From: a virus
Virus record (IMG/VR): IMGVR_UViG_3300036820_000012
Span: 1-64,000 of that record
Reading direction: 5' to 3' (one strand)
Length of the DNA stretch: 64,000 nt
In this document: positions 7,435 to 27,401 of the stretch, in pieces
Layout: each line of letters opens with the position of its first letter
How positions within the stretch are numbered: the first letter of the stretch is position 1
Notes under the pieces: generated by a model
Database searches by the model: none
Told to the model about the DNA's origin: nothing
What the model saw: only the letters and a program-made list of their open reading frames with translations
Translations under genes and position numbers: made by a program

Positions 7435-8090
7435 GGCCGCTATTGCTCGATTTGTTCTCGGGCGCGGGTGGTGCGGCGCGCGGCTACCAGCTTGCCGGGT
7501 TCCACGTCACAGGCGTCGACCTCAGCCCGCAGCCGAACTACTGCGGCGATGAGTTCATCCAGGCGGATGCCACCACCTTCCCGTTGGAAGGCTTCAGCGC
7601 AGTTCACGCTTCCCCCCCATGCCAGGACCACTCCGGCCTGCGGCACCCGCTGGCAGGCTCGCACGGCACCGGCTGGATGCTCGCGGCCACCCGGGAACGG
7701 CTCCGGGCGCAGCGGGCACCATGGGTGCTCGAGAACGTGCTCGGCTCCGGCCTCGCCGAGCAGGACGACCTGCTGGGCACCCGCGGCCTGCTGCTGTGCG
7801 GTGCGATGTTCGGATTGCCGCTGTACCGGCACCGGCTGTTCGAGACCAGCTTTCCGGTAGGGGCACCGCATCACCCGCGGCATCTTGTACCGGCTAGCAA
7901 GGCGGGCCACTGGAAGCCGGGGACGGTCATCTCTGTCGCCGGCAACTGCGCGCCGATCGAACTCGCCCGTCACGCCATGGGCGACGTGGACTGGATGACA
8001 CGGGACGAGCTCGCCGAGTCGATCCCGCCAGCGTTCGCCGAGTACATCGGCACCAGCCTGCTCGAGCACCTCCGGCAGCGTGCAGCGTGA
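7431..8090 (+). CDS. DNA (cytosine-5) methyltransferase, short phage form
   Basis: Seen: motif I LDLFSGAGG (6-14), motif IV with catalytic Cys in SPPCQDHS (C64), motif VI ENV (101-103), a QxRxR-like YRHRLFE segment, and motif X IPPAFAEYIG near the C-terminus. At 219 aa it is much shorter than typical enzymes, with a minimal target-recognition region, as seen in actinophages. GTG 7431 overlaps the VRR-NUC stop. With the adenine methylase upstream, the phage modifies DNA in two ways and shows no cognate endonuclease, consistent with anti-restriction. Confidence 0.85.
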   Translation: MRPLLLDLFSGAGGAARGYQLAGFHVTGVDLSPQPNYCGDEFIQADATTFPLEGFSAVHASPPCQDHSGLRHPLAGSHGTGWMLAATRERLRAQRAPWVLENVLGSGLAEQDDLLGTRGLLLCGAMFGLPLYRHRLFETSFPVGAPHHPRHLVPASKAGHWKPGTVISVAGNCAPIELARHAMGDVDWMTRDELAESIPPAFAEYIGTSLLEHLRQRAA

Positions 8091-8389
8091 GTACCCGCCG
8101 CAAGTCCATGGCCTCCCGTGCCGCAGAGATGAACCTCGCCCCAGCCAAACCACCGCTCGCTGGCTTCTGGGACGACGGGGCTGTGCTGGCTATGCCCGTG
8201 ACTGACCGGGATGCAGAGCGGGCCGGGAAAGCAGAGCGCAGGCAGCAGAAAGACGCGGCGAGGGGAGTGGCCCGCTGGTCGATGCTCGCCGCCCACGGCT
8301 GTACGGGGAAGCGGTGCCGGTCACCTCAGCACGCAGCGGCACGGGAAGTGCGGAATGAGCTGCTGGACGCGCTGGGGGTCGGGCAGTGA
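8087..8389 (+). CDS. hypothetical basic protein, 100 aa
   Basis: Soluble, basic protein with a short CTGKRC cysteine pair near residue 73-77. GTG overlaps the methylase stop. It is the last gene of the first plus-strand run; a minus-strand gene converges on it two bases later. Confidence 0.6.
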   Translation: MSTRRKSMASRAAEMNLAPAKPPLAGFWDDGAVLAMPVTDRDAERAGKAERRQQKDAARGVARWSMLAAHGCTGKRCRSPQHAAAREVRNELLDALGVGQ

Positions 8390-8391
8390 GG

Positions 8392-8619
8392 TCAGGACTG
8401 CGCGGTCTTGCGCTTGGCTTCCTTCACGGCGTCGGCGGTGACCCGGCTGATAGTCGCGCGGTCGTAGAACTTGCCGATCGCGGCCTCGAGGTCGGCCAGC
8501 TTGAGGGCCGGATTCTCGCGGCGCACCTCAACCAGCAGTTCCTTGATCCGGCCCGTGTGGCGCTGGAGGGCGGCGTCAGCCCGGCGCGCTGCCTTGACTT
8601 CGGCGAGCAGTTCGTTCAT
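8392..8619 (-). CDS. putative small HTH DNA-binding protein, 75 aa
   Basis: A rare minus-strand gene in the early region. The ATG at 8619 is preceded by a GGGGAGG Shine-Dalgarno at good spacing, so it is chosen over the GTG at 8628. It is all helical; residues 38-62 end in YDRATISRV, which resembles the recognition helix of lambda-Cro/XRE-type HTH proteins. Divergent from the next plus-strand gene across a region with repeated GTCATGAC-like sites, so it may be an autoregulated repressor of the replication genes (inference). Confidence 0.6.
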   Translation of the reverse strand: MNELLAEVKAARRADAALQRHTGRIKELLVEVRRENPALKLADLEAAIGKFYDRATISRVTADAVKEAKRKTAQS

Positions 8620-8797
8620 CGCGTCCACCTCCCCATGATCGGTGATCTCGGGTCACGAACTCAAGTCATGACCGAGATCAGCGTACCACGAAAACCCGAT
8701 GTCGTGACCCACTCGCATCATCTCGCTTGATGATGTAGGATCATGACTCGCAGTAGTAATCGCAGGCTCCGGTTGGGATAGCGGATGGCGGGGATCA
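8620..8797. promoter_or_regulatory. divergent intergenic region with operator-like sites
   Basis: Between a minus-strand putative HTH gene and the plus-strand primase cluster. It is lower in GC than its surroundings. Four variants of the palindromic octamer GTCATGAC occur at 8652-8659, 8665-8672, 8701-8708 and 8740-8747. A perfect 7-bp inverted repeat CATCATC/GATGATG (8716-8722 and 8729-8735) lies among them. A possible -10 (TAGGAT) is at 8736-8741. This is the layout of a promoter-operator region; the actual start sites are not proven. Confidence 0.5.
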
Positions 8798-9304
8798 GTG
8801 GCGAAACCAGAGGCGCGCGGCAGCATCCCAGGGTGCAGCGATGAGCGCTGGACGGCAATCGCTGACGGCAAGGCCGAGCCCACGCCTGCCGAAATCGCCA
8901 TCCTCCTGGCAGTCAGCGCCGAGCGCGATCTCTGCGAGAAGCGGATCGATGCCGCGTGGCGTGCCGGGTTCGGCCGGGGCCGCGCATGCGGCCGGCGCGA
9001 GGGCTACATCCACGCCGACGCCGAGCGGGCTGCTGAATGGCAGACGACCCAGGCCCTGCTCATTGGCGCTACCGAGTCCGTTCTCAATCCCGATGGCATC
9101 GCGCTGCGCAACGTCCGGGGGGCCGTTGCTGCGGAACGGCGCGATGCCGCCGAGCGTGAGCGTGTGTTCGTGGCCAAGGCTTACGCCACCGCGGACAAGG
9201 ACCGCAGCGACGCGCAGCGCGCCGCCGTGCGGTCCTACCCGCCGCCATCCCAGGAGTGCAAGCCTGCCCGTGGTCGTCATCTTCGGGCGGTGGCCAATGA
9301 CTGA
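8798..9304 (+). CDS. hypothetical protein preceding primase, 168 aa
   Basis: GTG 8798 follows a GGCGGGG ribosome-binding site. The first 50 residues read like a short HTH-containing head (SDERWTAIADGKAEPTPAEI), followed by a long charged helical region. First gene rightwards from the operator-like region, overlapping the primase-helicase start, so it is probably co-regulated with replication. No family certain. Confidence 0.6.
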   Translation: MAKPEARGSIPGCSDERWTAIADGKAEPTPAEIAILLAVSAERDLCEKRIDAAWRAGFGRGRACGRREGYIHADAERAAEWQTTQALLIGATESVLNPDGIALRNVRGAVAAERRDAAERERVFVAKAYATADKDRSDAQRAAVRSYPPPSQECKPARGRHLRAVAND

Positions 9305-10805
9305 GCGCTGCAACTGCGGGCGCCCGCTGATTGACCGGCCCGGTGAGATCGGACTCACCTGCTCCCAGTGCTCCGACAAACCCGGCTTCTGCGAGTGCCC
9401 GCCGATGACGGCGCGGGTGGCGACGGCGGGGCGCGGCAGGCACCGCACGCTTCCGCCGCCCGGTCAGTTCGCCGACGACCCGCTGCCCGAAGAGCCGTGG
9501 ACGCAACTCGGGTACGCCAACCGGCTCGTGGTGGTCTACGGCGAGCGCCTGCGCTACGTACGCGCGTGGAAGCAGTGGCTGGTGTGGGACGGCAAGCGGT
9601 GGGCGCACGACGAGACCGGGCAGGCCGAACGGTGGGCCAAGATGACCGCGCGCCGGATGACGGACTTCGTGCTGGCCAGCGACGACCCGGACGTGCGACG
9701 CGACTGCTACCCCATCGCCGAGAAGGGCGAGACGAACGCGGTTGTCACCAGCGTCCTGAACCTGGCCAGCACCAATGAGCGCATCGCCATCACGCACGGC
9801 GACCTGGATGCCGACCCGTTCCTGCTCAACTGCCCGAACGGGGTACTTGACCTGCGCACCGGGGATCTGAGGCCGCACAGCCCGAATGACCTGCTTACCA
9901 AGATGACGCTGGCCGCTTACGACCCCGAGGCCCCAGGTCCGGGGTTCCGCGCGTTCCTGGAACGCGTCCAGCCGGACGAGGGTATGCGCGCCTTCCTGGC
10001 CCGGCTGCTCGGCCATGCACTCGAAGGCCGCATCACCGAGCACATCCTGCCGATCTTCTGGGGAACCGGCAAGAACGGCAAGTCCACGCTCACGACCGCC
10101 GTTGTCGAGGCCCTGGGCGACTATGCGGACACCGCCGACCGTGACCTGCTGGCCGCGCGGTCGTTCGACGCCCACCCGACCGGCGTTGCCGACCTGTTCG
10201 GCCTGCGCCTGGCCAGGATTGACGAGCCCGACCATGGCCGGCGTCTCGCCGAGGGCACCGTCAAGCAGCTGACTGGCGGCGACCGCGTGAAGGCGCGGCG
10301 AATGCGCGAGGACTTCTGGTCGTTCGACCCGACCCACACGTTCCTGATGCTGACCAACCACCGACCGGTGATCACGGGTACCGATGAGGGCATCTGGCGG
10401 CGGGTTCGGCTCGTCCCGTGGCCCATCGTCATCCCAGAAGCAGAGCGTGACCGCACACTCGGCGACCGGCTCCGGCTTGAAGCGGACGCGGTTCTCGCGT
10501 GGCTGGTGGCCGGCTACCGGGACTGGGCCGCGCACGGCCTCGGCGAACCCGATGCCGTGACGCAGGCCACAGCGAACTACCGCGACGGCTCAGACCCGCT
10601 CGGCCGGTTCCTGGCCGACAAATGCATGACCCACGGGGAGATCAAGTCCTCCGACCTGTTCGCCGCCTGGCAGAAGTGGTGCGCCAGCGAGGGCGAGGAG
10701 TCCGGCACCAACAAGGCGCTTTCCGAGGAACTCGAGAACAAGGGCTTCGACAAGAAGCGGGCAGCCACGGGGATCTTCTGGAAGGGGCTGAACCTCAGTG
10801 CATGA
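9297..10805 (+). CDS. D5-type primase-helicase (SF3 ATPase)
   Basis: Predicted replicative helicase with primase-associated region, as in P4-alpha/D5-like phage proteins. An N-terminal zinc module has paired cysteines (C5, C7, C22, C25, C32, C34). The D5_N region covers about 70-235 (with NCPNGVLDLRTGDL at 178-191). The SF3 helicase core has Walker A GTGKNGKST (256-264), Walker B LARIDEPD (about 305-312) and motif C ending in N354 (HTFLMLTN). No archaeo-eukaryotic or TOPRIM primase motif is evident in these 502 aa. Start ATG 9297 overlaps the previous stop. A repeat array that looks like an origin starts directly at its stop codon. Confidence 0.88.
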   Translation: MTERCNCGRPLIDRPGEIGLTCSQCSDKPGFCECPPMTARVATAGRGRHRTLPPPGQFADDPLPEEPWTQLGYANRLVVVYGERLRYVRAWKQWLVWDGKRWAHDETGQAERWAKMTARRMTDFVLASDDPDVRRDCYPIAEKGETNAVVTSVLNLASTNERIAITHGDLDADPFLLNCPNGVLDLRTGDLRPHSPNDLLTKMTLAAYDPEAPGPGFRAFLERVQPDEGMRAFLARLLGHALEGRITEHILPIFWGTGKNGKSTLTTAVVEALGDYADTADRDLLAARSFDAHPTGVADLFGLRLARIDEPDHGRRLAEGTVKQLTGGDRVKARRMREDFWSFDPTHTFLMLTNHRPVITGTDEGIWRRVRLVPWPIVIPEAERDRTLGDRLRLEADAVLAWLVAGYRDWAAHGLGEPDAVTQATANYRDGSDPLGRFLADKCMTHGEIKSSDLFAAWQKWCASEGEESGTNKALSEELENKGFDKKRAATGIFWKGLNLSA

Positions 10806-11155
10806 AAACCCGCAGGTCATGAAGGGTGTGCAGGGTCTACCGGACTTTGACATCAGCCTGGGCAGTGTAGGGAGGCGAACCCTTCATACCCTGCATGACC
10901 TGCGACGATGCGGCCTGTGTAGGGTCATGAAGGGTTTCAAGGTTCCCCGCCTTATAGGCGAATCGAACTGCCCTAGACCCTTCACAACCCTTCATTACCG
11001 CAGGTCATGCACCGTGTGCAGGGTGTGCAGGGTTCGCTGTTCCATTCCAGCGCGCACACGCACACACATGCATGGGCTGTCAATCTCTAAACCCTTCACA
11101 ACCCTGCATCCCTACACTGCGCCCGTCGCCTCCCTGGCAAGGGAGGGCGACTGAC
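10806..11155. repeat. iteron-like repeat region, candidate replication origin
   Basis: A 350-bp stretch without a convincing gene, richer in A/T than its neighbours. The 11-mer CGCAGGTCATG occurs at 10811-10821 and 10999-11009 and, inverted, at 10894-10904. It is combined with variants of AAGGGTnnnnnAGGGT: forward units begin near 10819, 10920 and 11010, and inverted units lie at 10879-10900, 10977-10999 and 11091-11119. A short CA-rich tract is at 11052-11070. Directly repeated and inverted 20-30 bp units beside the replicative helicase are typical of phage and plasmid origins; the function is inferred. Confidence 0.55.
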
Positions 11156-17476: not shown

Positions 17477-17559
17477 AACGCCGTGGCGGCAAACGCTTCT
17501 CGTCGGCGGGGCCGCGTGTGGATGACCCGGAATCAATGGACGGTACATGGAAGGTGTGC

Positions 17560-17660
17560 GAACGGAGGTTCCGGTGTTCCTGTCGTCAGCTTCCGGTGTT
17601 CTGCGCGACGTTCCGGTGTTGCGCGTCAGGATCACGTGATCCTGGTTCCGGTGTTCCACT
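17560..17660. repeat. four TTCCGGTGTT repeats and an 18-bp perfect palindrome
   Basis: The decamer TTCCGGTGTT occurs at 17569-17578, 17591-17600, 17611-17620 and 17646-17655. An 18-bp perfect palindrome, CAGGATCACGTGATCCTG, lies at 17627-17644 between the third and fourth copies and overlaps the stop codon of the minus-strand HTH gene. The copy at 17646 lies inside that gene's 3' end. This looks like a protein-binding array (operator or iterons); which protein binds is inferred, not shown. Confidence 0.6.
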
Positions 17661-18054
17661 CAGCCTCAGCCTTCCGGGCGAGTGCAATCTTGCGCTCGTC
17701 GGCGCACAGCACGAAGACGCTGGCCCATCCACGCCGACCGTGGAACTTCCCGTTGGAGTGCCGGTACAGCAGGCCCTCCTCGAGCAGCACGTTGACGTGC
17801 TCGCGGACGGCCCGGGTGGACAGTCCCGTGGCCTGAGCGAGAAGCCGCTCACCGGGGCGCACGTTCTCGCCCGTGCCGTAGTCGGCGAAGGTGGCCAGCG
17901 CGTAGGCGACGGCCTTGGTCGTGGACGCGAGCGGCAGCCAGCGGATCAGGGGCACCCAGTCTTTGGGCGGCTGGGCCACGAGTTGGCGGGCGGTCACTGC
18001 TCGCTCGCCGTGCGGGGAGTGCCACGGTGAGTCACCGCGCGAGTCCGTGGACAA
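17632..18054 (-). CDS. winged-helix DNA-binding protein, replication-initiator-like
   Basis: Contains WVPLIRWLPLASTTKAVAYA, GTGENVRPGERLLAQATGLS and TRAVREHVNVLLEEGLLYR, the HTH_36-type winged helix found in actinobacterial plasmid/phage initiator-like and regulatory proteins. 140 aa from TTG 18054; a GTG at 17997 (about 121 aa, whole domain retained) is the alternative, and neither has a strong ribosome-binding site. It runs against the surrounding genes. Its last codons (for NTGT) are one unit of the repeat array that continues past the stop, so it probably binds DNA at its own 3' end. Confidence 0.7.
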   Translation of the reverse strand: MSTDSRGDSPWHSPHGERAVTARQLVAQPPKDWVPLIRWLPLASTTKAVAYALATFADYGTGENVRPGERLLAQATGLSTRAVREHVNVLLEEGLLYRHSNGKFHGRRGWASVFVLCADERKIALARKAEAEWNTGTRIT

Positions 18055-18109
18055 GTAGGGGCACTTCGCTTAGCATGAGGGCGTTCCTTGGGCTAACGGG
18101 GGCACGCAG

Positions 18110-18143
18110 GGCCGGTTATCTCTTGGCAGGGAGACCGGCCTTT
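18110..18143 (+). terminator. stem-loop with short T tract
   Basis: GGCCGGTTATCTC pairs with GAGACCGGCC (three-base bulge) and is followed by TTT on the plus strand. It lies downstream of the first early run and upstream of the promoter for the second, so it would insulate the two. Confidence 0.45.
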
Positions 18144-18157
18144 CGCATGCGCGAGGG

Positions 18158-18376
18158 CTATTCAGGCTTGCGGGCCGGCCTCTGCGGCATGTCGTCGATG
18201 TCGCCCACGTACCACCGGGCGAACTTGCGCAGAAGTGCGGAGCGGTTGGAGTCGGGGTCGGCGCGCTTAGCCGACTCGTCCAGCCGCCGCCATAGGTCGT
18301 CATCCATGCGGATGCGCCGGAATGGCGTTCCCTCTTGGGCCACGTGCTCTCCGTTGTCGGGCTTGCTGTCGTCCAC
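18158..18376 (-). CDS. ribbon-helix-helix (CopG-like) repressor candidate, 72 aa
   Basis: Residues 17-60 read as beta strand (FRRIRMDDDLWRRL) then two helices (DESAKRA...SNRSALLRKFARWYV), the ribbon-helix-helix pattern of CopG/Arc-type dimeric repressors. The GTG at 18376 has an AGAGGA ribosome-binding site six bases upstream and is preferred to the ATG at 18391, which would place that site inside the gene. Divergent from the 18457 operon across a promoter carrying an ACTGT/ACAGT inverted repeat, so it probably represses both directions (inference). Confidence 0.65.
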   Translation of the reverse strand: MDDSKPDNGEHVAQEGTPFRRIRMDDDLWRRLDESAKRADPDSNRSALLRKFARWYVGDIDDMPQRPARKPE

Positions 18377-18396
18377 CGGACATCCTCTCATGTGGG

Positions 18397-18425
18397 TTGA
18401 CTGTGCCTACAGTATGCCCTACGCT
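18397..18425 (+). promoter_or_regulatory. sigma-70-type promoter with operator in the spacer
   Basis: TTGACT (18397-18402), a 17-bp spacer and TACGCT (18420-18425) form a near-consensus promoter for the plus-strand genes that start at 18457. The spacer overlaps an inverted repeat ACTGT-GCCT-ACAGT (18400-18413), a natural operator for the divergent ribbon-helix-helix protein. Start-site mapping is not available from sequence. Confidence 0.65.
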
Positions 18426-18456
18426 GGGGAGGACAGCAAGCGATCTAGGAGTACCG

Positions 18457-23838: not shown

Positions 23839-25250
23839 GGCGCGGGAGGGGCAGACCCCCAAAGTGCGTGGACCTCGGCCAGATAGTCGTCCGGGCTCAT
23901 ATGGTCAGGCTGGGCGAGGCCCCTGCGAACCAGCGCGCCGCTGATTGCCCGTGCCTCGATGACTCCGCGCCCTGACCAGTTGTAGTAGTCCGGGAGTGCG
24001 ACGGCAGGCAACGTCTGCGCTGAGCGGTCGGCGGCCCGCCGGACCCCTACGCCAGCCGAATGCGGGCCGAGGCGCTCAACCAGCGCCTGGAGCACGCGGC
24101 CCGTAGTGCCCGCTGGCAGGCTGAGGCTGAGATCTAGGTCGCGGGCGACATCATTGCCGAAGGCCGAATCGAGCGCGCCCGGGTCCAGTTGCACGAGCAG
24201 ATCGGCCATGGGCCGCGTCAGCATGTGGTCTCTGGCAGCATCGCTCAGGACGCCCCCGACATTGGACCGGATGGCCGGTGCCGGGATCACGTCCGAATAC
24301 GCGGCCGAAACTGCGCCGAGCAGGTAACCCGGGCCCTCTTCCCACGGTTTGCGGCCTACCGACAGCTTCGCCAGCATCCCATCACCACGGCCAGCCAGGA
24401 AGCCGAGCGCCTCTCTGACCGCAGCATCTTGGCCGGCCCACCTGGTGAAGGATGCGTCATCCATTGGCAGCCCTGCGAGTTCCGCCAGGTGTCGCCATGG
24501 GTCCACCGCCACCATGTACCAGACGATCAGCGCCAGGAACTGGGAGGCGTCCTCGCGCCTGCCGCATGGCGTTTCTGACGCACGAGAGAAGTTGCGCTGC
24601 ATCCGCGGGCCGAAGAAATCGTCGCTCATCCCGCGGACTTGCCCCCACGTCCGGCGCGTCTCGCGCCACAGGTACTCCGCCGCGCCGTCCTGCTCGCTGC
24701 TCAGGGCGCGCCAGAGTTCGTGCTTCCCGGCAGTCCTGGTCAGCGACCTCATGTACTCGTGGTGGCGTGGGCCCACTTTCGACATGAAGCGCCACGACAC
24801 GTCCGGGATCGTGATCTCGGGCAGGTCGCCGGGCGGCACCGGGCCGCCCAGGACGGACATGGCGAGGTCGGCTAGTTCTGCCCAGCCCGCTCGCTCAGAT
24901 GCTTTGCGTTCCGCGTCGTGGCGCTCGTACAGCAGCTCGCGCCCGAGTGCTGTCGCTTGTTCATTCAGGAGCGTGCCGCCCGCGGCGACGATGCGCGTGA
25001 TCTCTTCGCTCTCGGCTACGAGAAGATCCCCTGCCGGTACGTCCTCCCGGATTGGGACCATCAGGGGCCTAAGCCCGGCGTTCCGCAATTCGGCTATCCA
25101 GGAGCGCACTCGCCGCGCATAGCTACCGCGCAGGCGCTCCGGGAGAGTCTTGGTGGTCTGGCCGATGTACTTCAACTGGTCGTCGCGCGGGTCAACGAGT
25201 CCGTAGACGGTGCCCGTGGCGGGGGGTGCCGCAGTTGTCGTCGCCATCAT
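23835..25250 (-). CDS. GIY-YIG nuclease domain fused to a large unknown domain, 471 aa
   Basis: Residues 13-98 form a GIY-YIG nuclease: VYG (15-17), KYIG (27-30), R39/R41, E80 or E82 and N96 in LLNEQ are the expected catalytic positions. The remaining ~370 residues are helical and match no family I recognise, so this is not a standard homing endonuclease. The start ATG overlaps the stop of the upstream tyrosine recombinase (ATGA), so the two proteins are made together. A role in cutting DNA during excision, transfer or superinfection exclusion is speculation. Confidence 0.75.
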   Translation of the reverse strand: MMATTTAAPPATGTVYGLVDPRDDQLKYIGQTTKTLPERLRGSYARRVRSWIAELRNAGLRPLMVPIREDVPAGDLLVAESEEITRIVAAGGTLLNEQATALGRELLYERHDAERKASERAGWAELADLAMSVLGGPVPPGDLPEITIPDVSWRFMSKVGPRHHEYMRSLTRTAGKHELWRALSSEQDGAAEYLWRETRRTWGQVRGMSDDFFGPRMQRNFSRASETPCGRREDASQFLALIVWYMVAVDPWRHLAELAGLPMDDASFTRWAGQDAAVREALGFLAGRGDGMLAKLSVGRKPWEEGPGYLLGAVSAAYSDVIPAPAIRSNVGGVLSDAARDHMLTRPMADLLVQLDPGALDSAFGNDVARDLDLSLSLPAGTTGRVLQALVERLGPHSAGVGVRRAADRSAQTLPAVALPDYYNWSGRGVIEARAISGALVRRGLAQPDHMSPDDYLAEVHALWGSAPPAP

Positions 25251-25900
25251 GCGTCCACGTGCGGCAGGTCGACGGCTTGCAGCGCCGCGATGGCCTCACG
25301 GTTGGTGAGGTGTGACAGATAGCGGTGGGTCACGGCGATGGATGAGTGGCCCAGCAACTTTGAAATCTGGGTCACCGGCACGCCTGCCGTCTCAAGCTCA
25401 GCCGCATAGGTGTGCCGCAGACCGTGGGGCGTCACCCGCTTTTCCACCCCCGCCTCTGCAGCGAGGCGGTGAAGCATCAGCCGCACATACTGGGCCCGTA
25501 GCGGGGAACCCCTGAGGGTGCAGAACAGCGGGCCCCGGATGCCCATGGCCTTCCGGGTGTCGATCCACCTTGCCACCGCGTCCGTGGCGCTCAGGTGGAA
25601 ACCGCGAGTCGTGGCCACGTCGCCCTTGCCGTGAAGCACGCGGATGCTGTGCTCGCTCAGGCTGACGTCAGACACCTTGAGCGGGGGTATGTCCCGCCGG
25701 TCATCCCCGACCGCCTCCGCGACCCGCAGCCCGGAGCGGTACAGCAGCATCAGGAGCGCGCGATTGCGGATACCTGTCGGTGCTGCGGCTGAGCAGCCCG
25801 CGATTATGGCCTGGACTTCATCGGTCGTCAGGACCTGGGGTGGGTACTTCTCACCCTTGTTGGCAGGCTCCTGGCCCTTCACCGAGCCAAACTGCACCAT
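25247..25900 (-). CDS. tyrosine recombinase, short catalytic form
   Basis: Site-specific recombinase of the XerC/phage integrase family. Catalytic residues are complete: R59 (GLRVAEA), K92 (HGKGD), H159-x-x-R162 (HGLR), H185 (LGHSS) and nucleophile Y194 (HRYLSH). ATG 25900 has a GGGAGG site six bases upstream, giving 217 aa; the GTG at 25978 gives 243 aa. Either way the usual ~80-100-residue core-binding (SAM-like) domain is missing and only ~30 residues precede the catalytic domain. It is coupled to a downstream GIY-YIG gene. Confidence 0.85.
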   Translation of the reverse strand: MVQFGSVKGQEPANKGEKYPPQVLTTDEVQAIIAGCSAAAPTGIRNRALLMLLYRSGLRVAEAVGDDRRDIPPLKVSDVSLSEHSIRVLHGKGDVATTRGFHLSATDAVARWIDTRKAMGIRGPLFCTLRGSPLRAQYVRLMLHRLAAEAGVEKRVTPHGLRHTYAAELETAGVPVTQISKLLGHSSIAVTHRYLSHLTNREAIAALQAVDLPHVDA

Positions 25901-26009
25901 GCGGGTCCTCCCGGCCGGTTTAGAAGTGCTACTGCACAGAAGCACTATCATTTCAGCCTGGAATCCAGCCCTCCACATGCCACGCCGCAGAAGCGCAACT
26001 ATTTCGGCC
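25901..26009. promoter_or_regulatory. intergenic region between the two recombinase genes
   Basis: Contains an inverted repeat AGTGCT/AGCACT (25925-25930 and 25941-25946) with a second GTGC/GCAC pair nested inside. It lies upstream of the tyrosine recombinase start, so it could be an operator or an arm-type recombinase site; nothing decides between them. Confidence 0.3.
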
Positions 26010-27401
26010 CTACTCGCGCGGCTCTACCTTCACCGAATCGCGGTCAAAGCCAGGCCCGCGCCGAGCCGGCAAGATCGTGATGCGGAAGCTTGCCGCCACC
26101 AGCCCCCGCCGTGTAGCCAGCGGAAGCGCCTCCCACTCCTCCAGCGTGATCCCCTCGTACTGGGCCAGCAGCCGCCGTCCCGGTGTAGCTGCGATCCGCT
26201 CCCGCACCGCGGCGATGCGCTCGTCAAACGAGGCGATGGCCCGCACCGTCACTGCCGGGTCCAGCCCCGGATGGTCGGCCAGTGCCTCCAGCGACTTCTG
26301 AGCCGCAGCCTTCCGCTTCTCAAGGACGGTGATCTCTGACGCTGCTGCAGGCTCCGGGGCCTTGCGGACGAGCGCGGCCAGCTGGTCCGAGGACAGCCAC
26401 TCCAGCATCCGTCCCACGATGTAGGCGTCGAGGTGGGCCACCGACCGGTGCAACTGTCGCTTGCACGCCGGGTTCACGCAGCCGTAGCCCAGGCGCAGGA
26501 TGCCGGCCCGCCTGGTCTGGCGCGGGCCGGCTGGCTTGCCGCAGCTGCCGCACAGCGCGATACCTGAGAGCAGGTGCCGACGCTGGCCGGAGGCGTTCGC
26601 GTACCCGGCGGCCCGCCCGGCGAGCATGGCGCACGCCAGTTCCCAGTCGTCGCGCTCCAGCACCGGCTCCCACGCCGCTTTCTGCTCTCCGTCCGGCATC
26701 AGCCCGGCGTAGCGCGGGTTCGTCACCACACGGCGGATCCCGGCATGCGTCCACGCCTTGCCGGTGACGGTCGTCTCGCCGCGGCTGTTGAGGCTGGCGG
26801 CGATGATCCGTGTGCCTTCCCCGGCCAGCACGCGGCGGGCCATCTCCCGGATGAGCGCAGTTTCGGCCGGGACGTGGGTGACGCCGTCGCTGGTGAAGCC
26901 GTAGAACCGGCCGCCGGGGCCGCCGGGGCGCACGAGGCCCTCGCGCCGCATCCGGTCGTACTGGGTTTTCTTGCGCCGGGAGATGGTGTCGGACTCGTTG
27001 CAGGCGCGGGCGACTTCCCAGCGCATCATCATCCGGTGGTCGGGGTTGTCGAAGTCGTACTGCCCGGCGATGGAGGCCACGGTGATGTGCCGGCCGTCGC
27101 GCAGGTCGAGCAGGTCTTCGAGGTCGCGGGGCTGGCGGACGATCCGGTCGCCCCAGTAGCTGACGATCGCGGCTGCCTTGCCTGCGGCGACGTCGGCGAG
27201 CATCTGGTCCCAGGCGGGGCGCTTGCGGTTGCGTTTCCAGGCAGATTTTGAGTGGTCGGTGTAAACGCCGGCGATCTCCCAGCCGCGCTGCCGGCACAGT
27301 TCCCGGCACTGGCGTTCCTGGTCGTCGGTTTTCGTGGTGTCCTCAAGGGCGGCAAGGCTGATCCTGCAGTAGATTGCAGCGCGCAGGCGTGGCTTAGGCA
27401 C
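26010..27401 (-). CDS. large serine recombinase (phage integrase)
   Basis: Large serine integrase of 463 aa. N-terminal resolvase domain with nucleophile S15 in YCRIS; the conserved DDQERQC segment follows (26-32), and a Recombinase domain spans about 160-260. A zinc ribbon has C284, C287, C308 and C313, followed by a coiled-coil region (about 350-395) and a C-terminal tail. All domains of phiC31/Bxb1-type integrases are present in order. GTG 27401. The predicted attP lies 10 bp upstream of the start. It would catalyse attP x attB integration without host factors, needing a directionality factor to excise. Confidence 0.9.
   Translation of the reverse strand: MPKPRLRAAIYCRISLAALEDTTKTDDQERQCRELCRQRGWEIAGVYTDHSKSAWKRNRKRPAWDQMLADVAAGKAAAIVSYWGDRIVRQPRDLEDLLDLRDGRHITVASIAGQYDFDNPDHRMMMRWEVARACNESDTISRRKKTQYDRMRREGLVRPGGPGGRFYGFTSDGVTHVPAETALIREMARRVLAGEGTRIIAASLNSRGETTVTGKAWTHAGIRRVVTNPRYAGLMPDGEQKAAWEPVLERDDWELACAMLAGRAAGYANASGQRRHLLSGIALCGSCGKPAGPRQTRRAGILRLGYGCVNPACKRQLHRSVAHLDAYIVGRMLEWLSSDQLAALVRKAPEPAAASEITVLEKRKAAAQKSLEALADHPGLDPAVTVRAIASFDERIAAVRERIAATPGRRLLAQYEGITLEEWEALPLATRRGLVAASFRITILPARRGPGFDRDSVKVEPRE

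What the first reader, a model, noticed from the sequence alone, without database searches (positions are those of the whole stretch)
8620..8797. Switch-like divergent region with four GTCATGAC variants
The gap between a small HTH gene (minus) and the primase cluster (plus) contains four variants of a palindromic octamer and a perfect CATCATC/GATGATG inverted repeat. This is a plausible operator for repression of replication in the lysogen.
Basis: partly seen in the sequence, partly recalled or inferred. Interest (0 to 1): 0.5.

Follow-up and report, generated by a model that had tools for sequence, protein, structure and literature searches.

The report
Probable operator upstream of phage primase
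A short stretch between two oppositely pointing genes of a bacterial virus looks like an ordinary control region, with repeated palindromes placed near its likely promoters, but no relative or experiment yet shows which protein binds there.

Summary
The motifs exist. In 8620-8797 GTCATGAC occurs exactly at 8665, with one mismatch at 8701 and 8740, and with two at 8652. CATCATC/GATGATG is real but chance level. The cluster is locally unusual: no other 178-bp stretch of the 80.7-kb record holds four TCRYGA cores. It fades to P about 0.13 once any palindrome may be chosen, and is unremarkable if two mismatches are allowed. The strongest feature was missed: a 38-bp imperfect inverted repeat (8643-8680) that contains two of the four octamers.

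The phage carries two integrases. The gap separates a coding-like 75-aa minus gene from a plus cluster with a D5/P4-type primase-helicase. Best reading: a divergent promoter/operator region bound by a local regulator, perhaps the 75-aa protein. That protein has no detected family; 'HTH' rests on inspection. Lysogenic repression is plausible but unshown. The origin is more likely the iteron cluster just 3' of the primase (10806-11130), where phage A2 has its annotated origin. Ordinary in kind.

The parts
8392..8619 (-). 75-aa orphan gene (P0001), presumed local regulator; GGAGG 8 nt upstream of its ATG
   Evidence: Coding score 0.39 per codon, GC3 0.88; picked by the simple gene caller; no relative confirmed
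8643..8680 (.). 38-bp imperfect inverted repeat (arms 8643-8658 and 8666-8680) holding octamers 8652 and 8665; possible main operator or leader hairpin
   Evidence: 1 of 300 shuffles as good; RNA fold z -2.14
8652..8659 (+). octamer variant GTCACGAA (2 mismatches)
8665..8672 (.). octamer GTCATGAC (exact)
8680..8685 (-). only TANNNT -10 candidate of the minus strand in 8610-8807 (TACGCT, preceded by TGG)
   Evidence: weak, P 0.35 in Markov sequences
8701..8708 (.). octamer variant GTCGTGAC; overlaps the -35 position (17-nt spacer) of the minus-strand candidate; 8702-8710 is an exact inverted copy of GGGTCACGA 8650-8658
8716..8735 (.). CATCATC/GATGATG 7-bp perfect inverted repeat
   Evidence: chance level
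8736..8741 (+). only TANNNT -10 candidate of the plus strand in 8610-8807 (TAGGAT), poor -35
8740..8747 (.). octamer variant ATCATGAC; overlaps the plus-strand -10 candidate
8798..9304 (+). 168-aa ORF, possible first gene of the plus-strand cluster
   Evidence: Weak coding score 0.09 per codon; not picked by the gene caller; no relative confirmed
9300..10805 (+). D5/P4-type primase-helicase (501 aa as tested; the gene caller starts it at 9270)
   Evidence: PF08706 E 7.6e-35; phrog_6088 E 8.4e-114

Best explanation
The gap is a divergent promoter/operator region of a probably temperate, high-G+C virus. A minus-strand promoter (-10 TACGCT, 8680-8685) reads the 75-aa gene and a plus-strand promoter (-10 TAGGAT, 8736-8741) reads the 168-aa ORF and the primase-helicase. 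A local regulator, most likely the 75-aa protein itself, binds TCRYGA-cored half-sites: two form the 38-bp inverted repeat just downstream of the inferred minus-strand start (about 8673), one lies over its -35 position, one overlaps the plus-strand -10. Binding would limit the regulator's own synthesis and hold back primase expression, in the prophage or early in infection. Shown: motifs, layout, coding character of the 75-aa gene and primase, integrases. Inferred: promoters, binding, regulator identity, timing.
For: Four TCRYGA cores in 178 bp, the only such place in 80.7 kb, 1 of 3,000 shuffles. 38-bp inverted repeat, 1 of 300 shuffles. GGGTCACGA found twice in 80.7 kb, both in this gap, in opposite orientation. 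One TANNNT candidate per strand, with octamers over or beside them. Coding support strong for the 75-aa gene and primase, weak for the 168-aa ORF. Integrases: phrog_95 E 5e-81 and phrog_216 E 6e-28 ('serine' and 'tyrosine' type are my recall). Of 38 gaps of at least 60 bp (genes plus two ORFs I added) only this one has three octamers with at most one mismatch, which fits a locally acting regulator. In the two closest of nine GTDB primase relatives (L021, L022; 60-61% identity) a minus-strand gene that reads by eye as an XRE-type repressor is divergent from a plus-strand cluster leading to the primase.
Against: Octamer P about 0.13 after choosing among palindromes, and 0.076 at two mismatches. 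Two octamers are one inverted repeat. The 75-aa protein has no family, confirmed relative or HTH in its model. No octamer cluster upstream of the primase in 19 IMG/VR relatives, 6 of which have under 2 kb there, or in L021 and L022. Promoter candidates are weak (P 0.35 minus; 0.04 plus with a consensus chosen to fit; none in the sigma-70 scan).
Confidence: 0.47

Rival explanations
1. Divergent promoter region whose octamers bind a different regulator (another phage protein such as the RHH-like 72-aa or winged-helix-like 121-aa protein, or a host factor); the 75-aa protein has another job.
For: Other small regulator-like minus genes exist: RHH_1-like at 18158-18376 (E 0.004) and HTH_24/CggR_N-like at 17632-17997 (E 0.001), both below curated cut-offs. 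The 75-aa protein has no HTH match above cut-off and no NCBIfam match.
Against: The gaps flanking those genes (17477-17631, 17998-18157, 18377-18456) hold no octamer with at most one mismatch.
Confidence: 0.2
2. The inverted repeat acts as an RNA hairpin in the leader of the 75-aa gene, just upstream of its Shine-Dalgarno, tuning mRNA stability or translation; the octamers are side effects of the hairpin plus chance.
For: RNA fold of 8620-8690 minus strand: -29.4 kcal/mol, z -2.14, 5 of 200 shuffles as good.
Against: Does not explain octamers 8701 and 8740 or the exact GGGTCACGA copy outside the hairpin; no Rfam match at E up to 1. The whole gap folded as DNA is unremarkable (z -0.77).
Confidence: 0.14
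3. The gap is (part of) the phage replication origin, the repeats being initiator sites.
For: Lower G+C, near a primase-helicase, palindromic sites.
Against: A much stronger iteron cluster lies just 3' of the primase, 10806-11130: its repeated-7-mer coverage exceeds all 661 background stretches; ACCCTKCA/TGMAGGGT 11 times within 700 nt of the primase end, 5 times elsewhere in 80.7 kb. Lactobacillus phage A2, with a related primase, has its annotated rep_origin at that position. The gap shares no more 7-mers with the iteron region than background.
Confidence: 0.04
4. Ordinary spacer; octamers and repeats are chance.
For: Corrected P about 0.13, and 0.076 at two mismatches; two other places with five two-mismatch copies; 7-bp repeat at chance level.
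Against: The TCRYGA cluster is unique in 80.7 kb and the 38-bp inverted repeat is rare in shuffles; some promoter is expected between two divergent genes.
Confidence: 0.15

Closest known systems
CI/Cro-type divergent immunity switch of temperate phages (e.g. Staphylococcus phage 13, PMC8516035; only the listing and the start of the abstract were seen)
   Same: Regulator gene divergent from the early/replication cluster, several related palindromic sites near the promoters, integrase genes in the genome
   Different: No CI/XRE-family protein detected next to the gap; 75-aa orphan protein; sites not shown to be bound
Actinobacterial loci with a related P4-type primase (L021 Actinomycetes MAG; L022 Pseudonocardia parietis)
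   Same: Minus-strand regulator-like gene divergent from a plus cluster leading to a 60-61% identical primase
   Different: Their regulators read by eye as larger XRE-type proteins followed by an excisionase-like gene (not profile-tested); the octamer cluster is absent
Streptomyces plasmids NBC_00104 unnamed1 and pSITFR-6c
   Same: A minus-strand gene divergent from a plus cluster that ends in a related P4-family primase
   Different: The first plus gene is annotated as a GntR regulator, and the divergent gap lies about 3 kb before the primase
Lactobacillus phage A2 replication module (NC_004112)
   Same: Related D5/P4-type primase (31% identity) with an iteron-rich stretch directly 3'
   Different: No divergent regulator next to the primase in the stretch shown; the annotated origin is 3' of the primase, not a gap before it

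Membership tests
CI/Cro-type divergent immunity switch | Repressor gene divergent from the lytic/replication cluster | tested here: inconclusive
   Divergent layout 8392-8619 minus / 8798-10805 plus is met; that the minus gene is a repressor is not shown
CI/Cro-type divergent immunity switch | Repressor with a recognisable DNA-binding domain | tested here: not met
   No Pfam match above cut-off (best HTH 13.8 bits against 33.7), no PHROG, NCBIfam or PDB sequence match; model shows two long helices, best Foldseek E 5.4
CI/Cro-type divergent immunity switch | Multiple related operators overlapping both promoters | tested here: inconclusive
   Four TCRYGA cores, unique cluster, but P 0.13 after choice of palindrome; promoters weak
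CI/Cro-type divergent immunity switch | Temperate genome (integrase) | tested here: met
   phrog_95 and phrog_216 integrases
CI/Cro-type divergent immunity switch | Sequence-specific binding and repression in the lysogen | not testable with these tools
   Needs footprinting and reporter assays
Iteron replication origin | Clustered iterons near the initiator or primase gene | tested here: not met
   Direct repeats of 8500-8900 are five two-copy families only; the iteron cluster is at 10806-11130 instead
Structured RNA of a known family | Match to an Rfam model | tested here: not met
   0 matches at E up to 1 in 8300-9400

The most novel reading that the evidence does not exclude
The 75-aa orphan founds a new small DNA-binding family that couples control of primase transcription to the origin: it binds GGGTCAYGA half-sites in the gap and also the copy inside the iteron cluster 3' of the primase. 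GGGTCAYGA occurs three times in 80.7 kb, two in the gap and one at 10922. Against it: the gap shares no more 7-mers with the iteron region than background.
Probability: 0.05. Interest if true: 0.45.

Novelty: new member of a known kind. Interest (0 to 1): 0.2.

Why it matters
If right, it marks the control point of replication-gene expression in a divergent temperate virus (portal 21-24% identical to the 15 listed of 26 matching phage records) and names an orphan 75-aa protein to test. It would not change a general concept.

Tried and rejected
Relatives of the 75-aa protein: IMG/VR (91 stretches matched a pattern, none confirmed), GTDB genomes (596 stretches, none confirmed), phages and plasmids, no match at E up to 1. 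Two genomes of primase relatives gave none. A draw of 394 genomes of one class gave 2 weak partial matches (E 0.0014 and 0.0048) inside frames of 299 and 1,282 aa, judged chance. A tblastn against 35 fetched loci gave, below E 0.01, only those same two. Structure prediction from one sequence and a PDB fold search gave nothing usable.

Conservation of the octamers upstream of primase relatives: scanned in the 2 kb before the primase of 19 IMG/VR loci, 6 of which have less than 2 kb there (L002, L009, L012, L013, L017, L019). At most three copies per locus, scattered. L021 and L022 have one and six copies over the whole 11-kb locus. The other 7 GTDB loci (L023-L029) were not scanned for octamers. 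The strict inverted-repeat pattern had no exact match in IMG/VR, and a related pattern matched none of the other 29 loci fetched by then.

Origin reading of the gap: rejected, see rivals. Shared sites between gap and iteron region: 6 shared 7-mers against a background mean of 9.0, not supported. Relatives of the 168-aa ORF: none confirmed; a weak 50-aa match before the primase in L021 (E 0.04) was not counted.

Papers: only search listings and starts of abstracts were seen; no paper was opened. Recalled or by eye, from no call: the TANNNT form of -10 sites, serine/tyrosine labels of the integrases, XRE- and excisionase-like labels in L021 and L022.

Full report
What and where. The window is bases 1-64,000 of an 80,723-bp virus record, G+C 68.5%. 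Around the finding the order is: plus-strand methyltransferase-like gene (7440-8087 as tested, phrog_363 E 2.6e-27), a 100-aa plus ORF ending at 8389, the 75-aa minus gene 8392-8619, the gap 8620-8797, a 168-aa plus ORF 8798-9304 and a D5/P4-type primase-helicase to 10805. Coding scores support the 75-aa gene clearly (0.39 per codon, GC3 0.88), the 168-aa ORF weakly (0.09) and the 100-aa ORF not (-0.12). My simple gene caller picked the 75-aa gene and the primase (start 9270) but neither of the other two ORFs, so the untranslated stretch before the primase could be longer than 178 bp. Two integrases make a temperate life likely.

The observation. All quoted motifs exist. The cluster of TCRYGA cores is unique in the 80.7 kb and rare in shuffles. 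Cautions: the octamer was chosen after looking (corrected P about 0.13); at two mismatches, which the fourth variant needs, P is 0.076 and two other places hold five copies; two of the four copies are the arms of one inverted repeat; CATCATC/GATGATG is expected in about one such gap in ten.

Anatomy. The inverted repeat 8643-8680 is the strongest single element (1 of 300 shuffles; tied seventh in 80.7 kb). Its half-site GGGTCACGA recurs exactly, inverted, at 8702-8710, and this 9-mer was found nowhere else in the record. A TANNNT scan of 8610-8807 finds one -10 candidate per strand: TACGCT (minus, 8680-8685) and TAGGAT (plus, 8736-8741), with poor -35 hexamers; the sigma-70 scan found none. 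One octamer overlaps the plus -10, one the minus -35 position, and the exact one lies just downstream of the inferred minus start. The P of 0.04 for the plus candidate used TAGGAT itself as consensus and is flattering; the minus candidate has P 0.35.

The regulator. The 75-aa protein has no family above cut-off and no confirmed relative. 'HTH' rests on the stretch LADLEAAIGKFYDRATISRV, HTH-like by eye with two extra residues in the turn; the best Pfam HTH hit is 13.8 bits against a cut-off of 33.7, and the model is two long helices (mean pLDDT 82, pTM 0.50). It is the nearest candidate because, of 38 gaps, only the one beside its gene has three octamers.

Comparison. In the two closest of nine GTDB primase relatives a minus-strand gene that reads as an XRE repressor is divergent from the cluster leading to the primase, so the position is a plausible control point; their sites differ. 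Of five annotated primase regions that I chose from the hits, phi105 and Amohnition show no minus gene within about 3.5 kb upstream, A2 only a small one nested in another gene, and the two Streptomyces plasmids a minus gene divergent from a GntR-led cluster about 3 kb before the primase.

The origin lies elsewhere. Directly 3' of the primase (10806-11130) are dense ACCCTKCA/TGMAGGGT repeats in both orientations; their repeat coverage beats all 661 background stretches. The motif itself is absent 3' of the primase in all 28 relatives scanned, but other repeats are rich there: of 26 relatives with enough sequence, L006, L021 and L025 beat every background stretch and L023 and L027 all but one, while others do not stand out (L016 has none). 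phi105 and A2 beat every background stretch, Amohnition all but one, the two Streptomyces plasmids do not. The observed value is the best of up to five offsets, which favours it slightly. A2 has its rep_origin annotated there. The two GTCATGAA variants at 10816 and 10924 belong to these iterons.

Verdict. A probable divergent operator/promoter region of a known kind, with an orphan candidate regulator. Lysogenic repression of replication is possible but rests on layout alone. On rechecking I added the two-mismatch result, which I had left out, and for it moved the best explanation from 0.50 to 0.47 and chance from 0.12 to 0.15.

Noticed in passing
window 10806-11130: Dense iteron-like ACCCTKCA/TGMAGGGT repeats in both orientations directly 3' of the primase, probably the replication origin. 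Primase relatives carry different repeats at the same place (ACCCTCCA in L021, ACGGGAG in phage A2's annotated origin, AAGTAAC in phi105, ATCTGTG in Amohnition). By eye also inverted pairs in L002, L003, L022, L035 and L037, which the repeat count did not rank at the top.
   Followed up: partly
window 25247-25951 and 26010-27401 (minus): Two integrase genes of different PHROG families (phrog_216 and phrog_95; by recall tyrosine and serine type) side by side in one phage.
   Followed up: no
window 18158-18456: RHH_1-like 72-aa minus gene (E 0.004, below cut-off) divergent from a plus gene across an 80-bp gap of 57% G+C: a second possible control region.
   Followed up: no
G000 77839-77912 (L030 16839-16912), outside the window: Divergent 74-bp gap of 51% G+C, the lowest of the 38 gaps of at least 60 bp, between two genes without Pfam or PHROG matches.
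   Followed up: no
window 17632-17997 (minus): 121-aa winged-helix-like protein resembling phage replication initiators (phrog_270 E 5e-6, phrog_678 E 3.5e-4; its best match is to a PHROG of unknown function), away from the primase.
   Followed up: no
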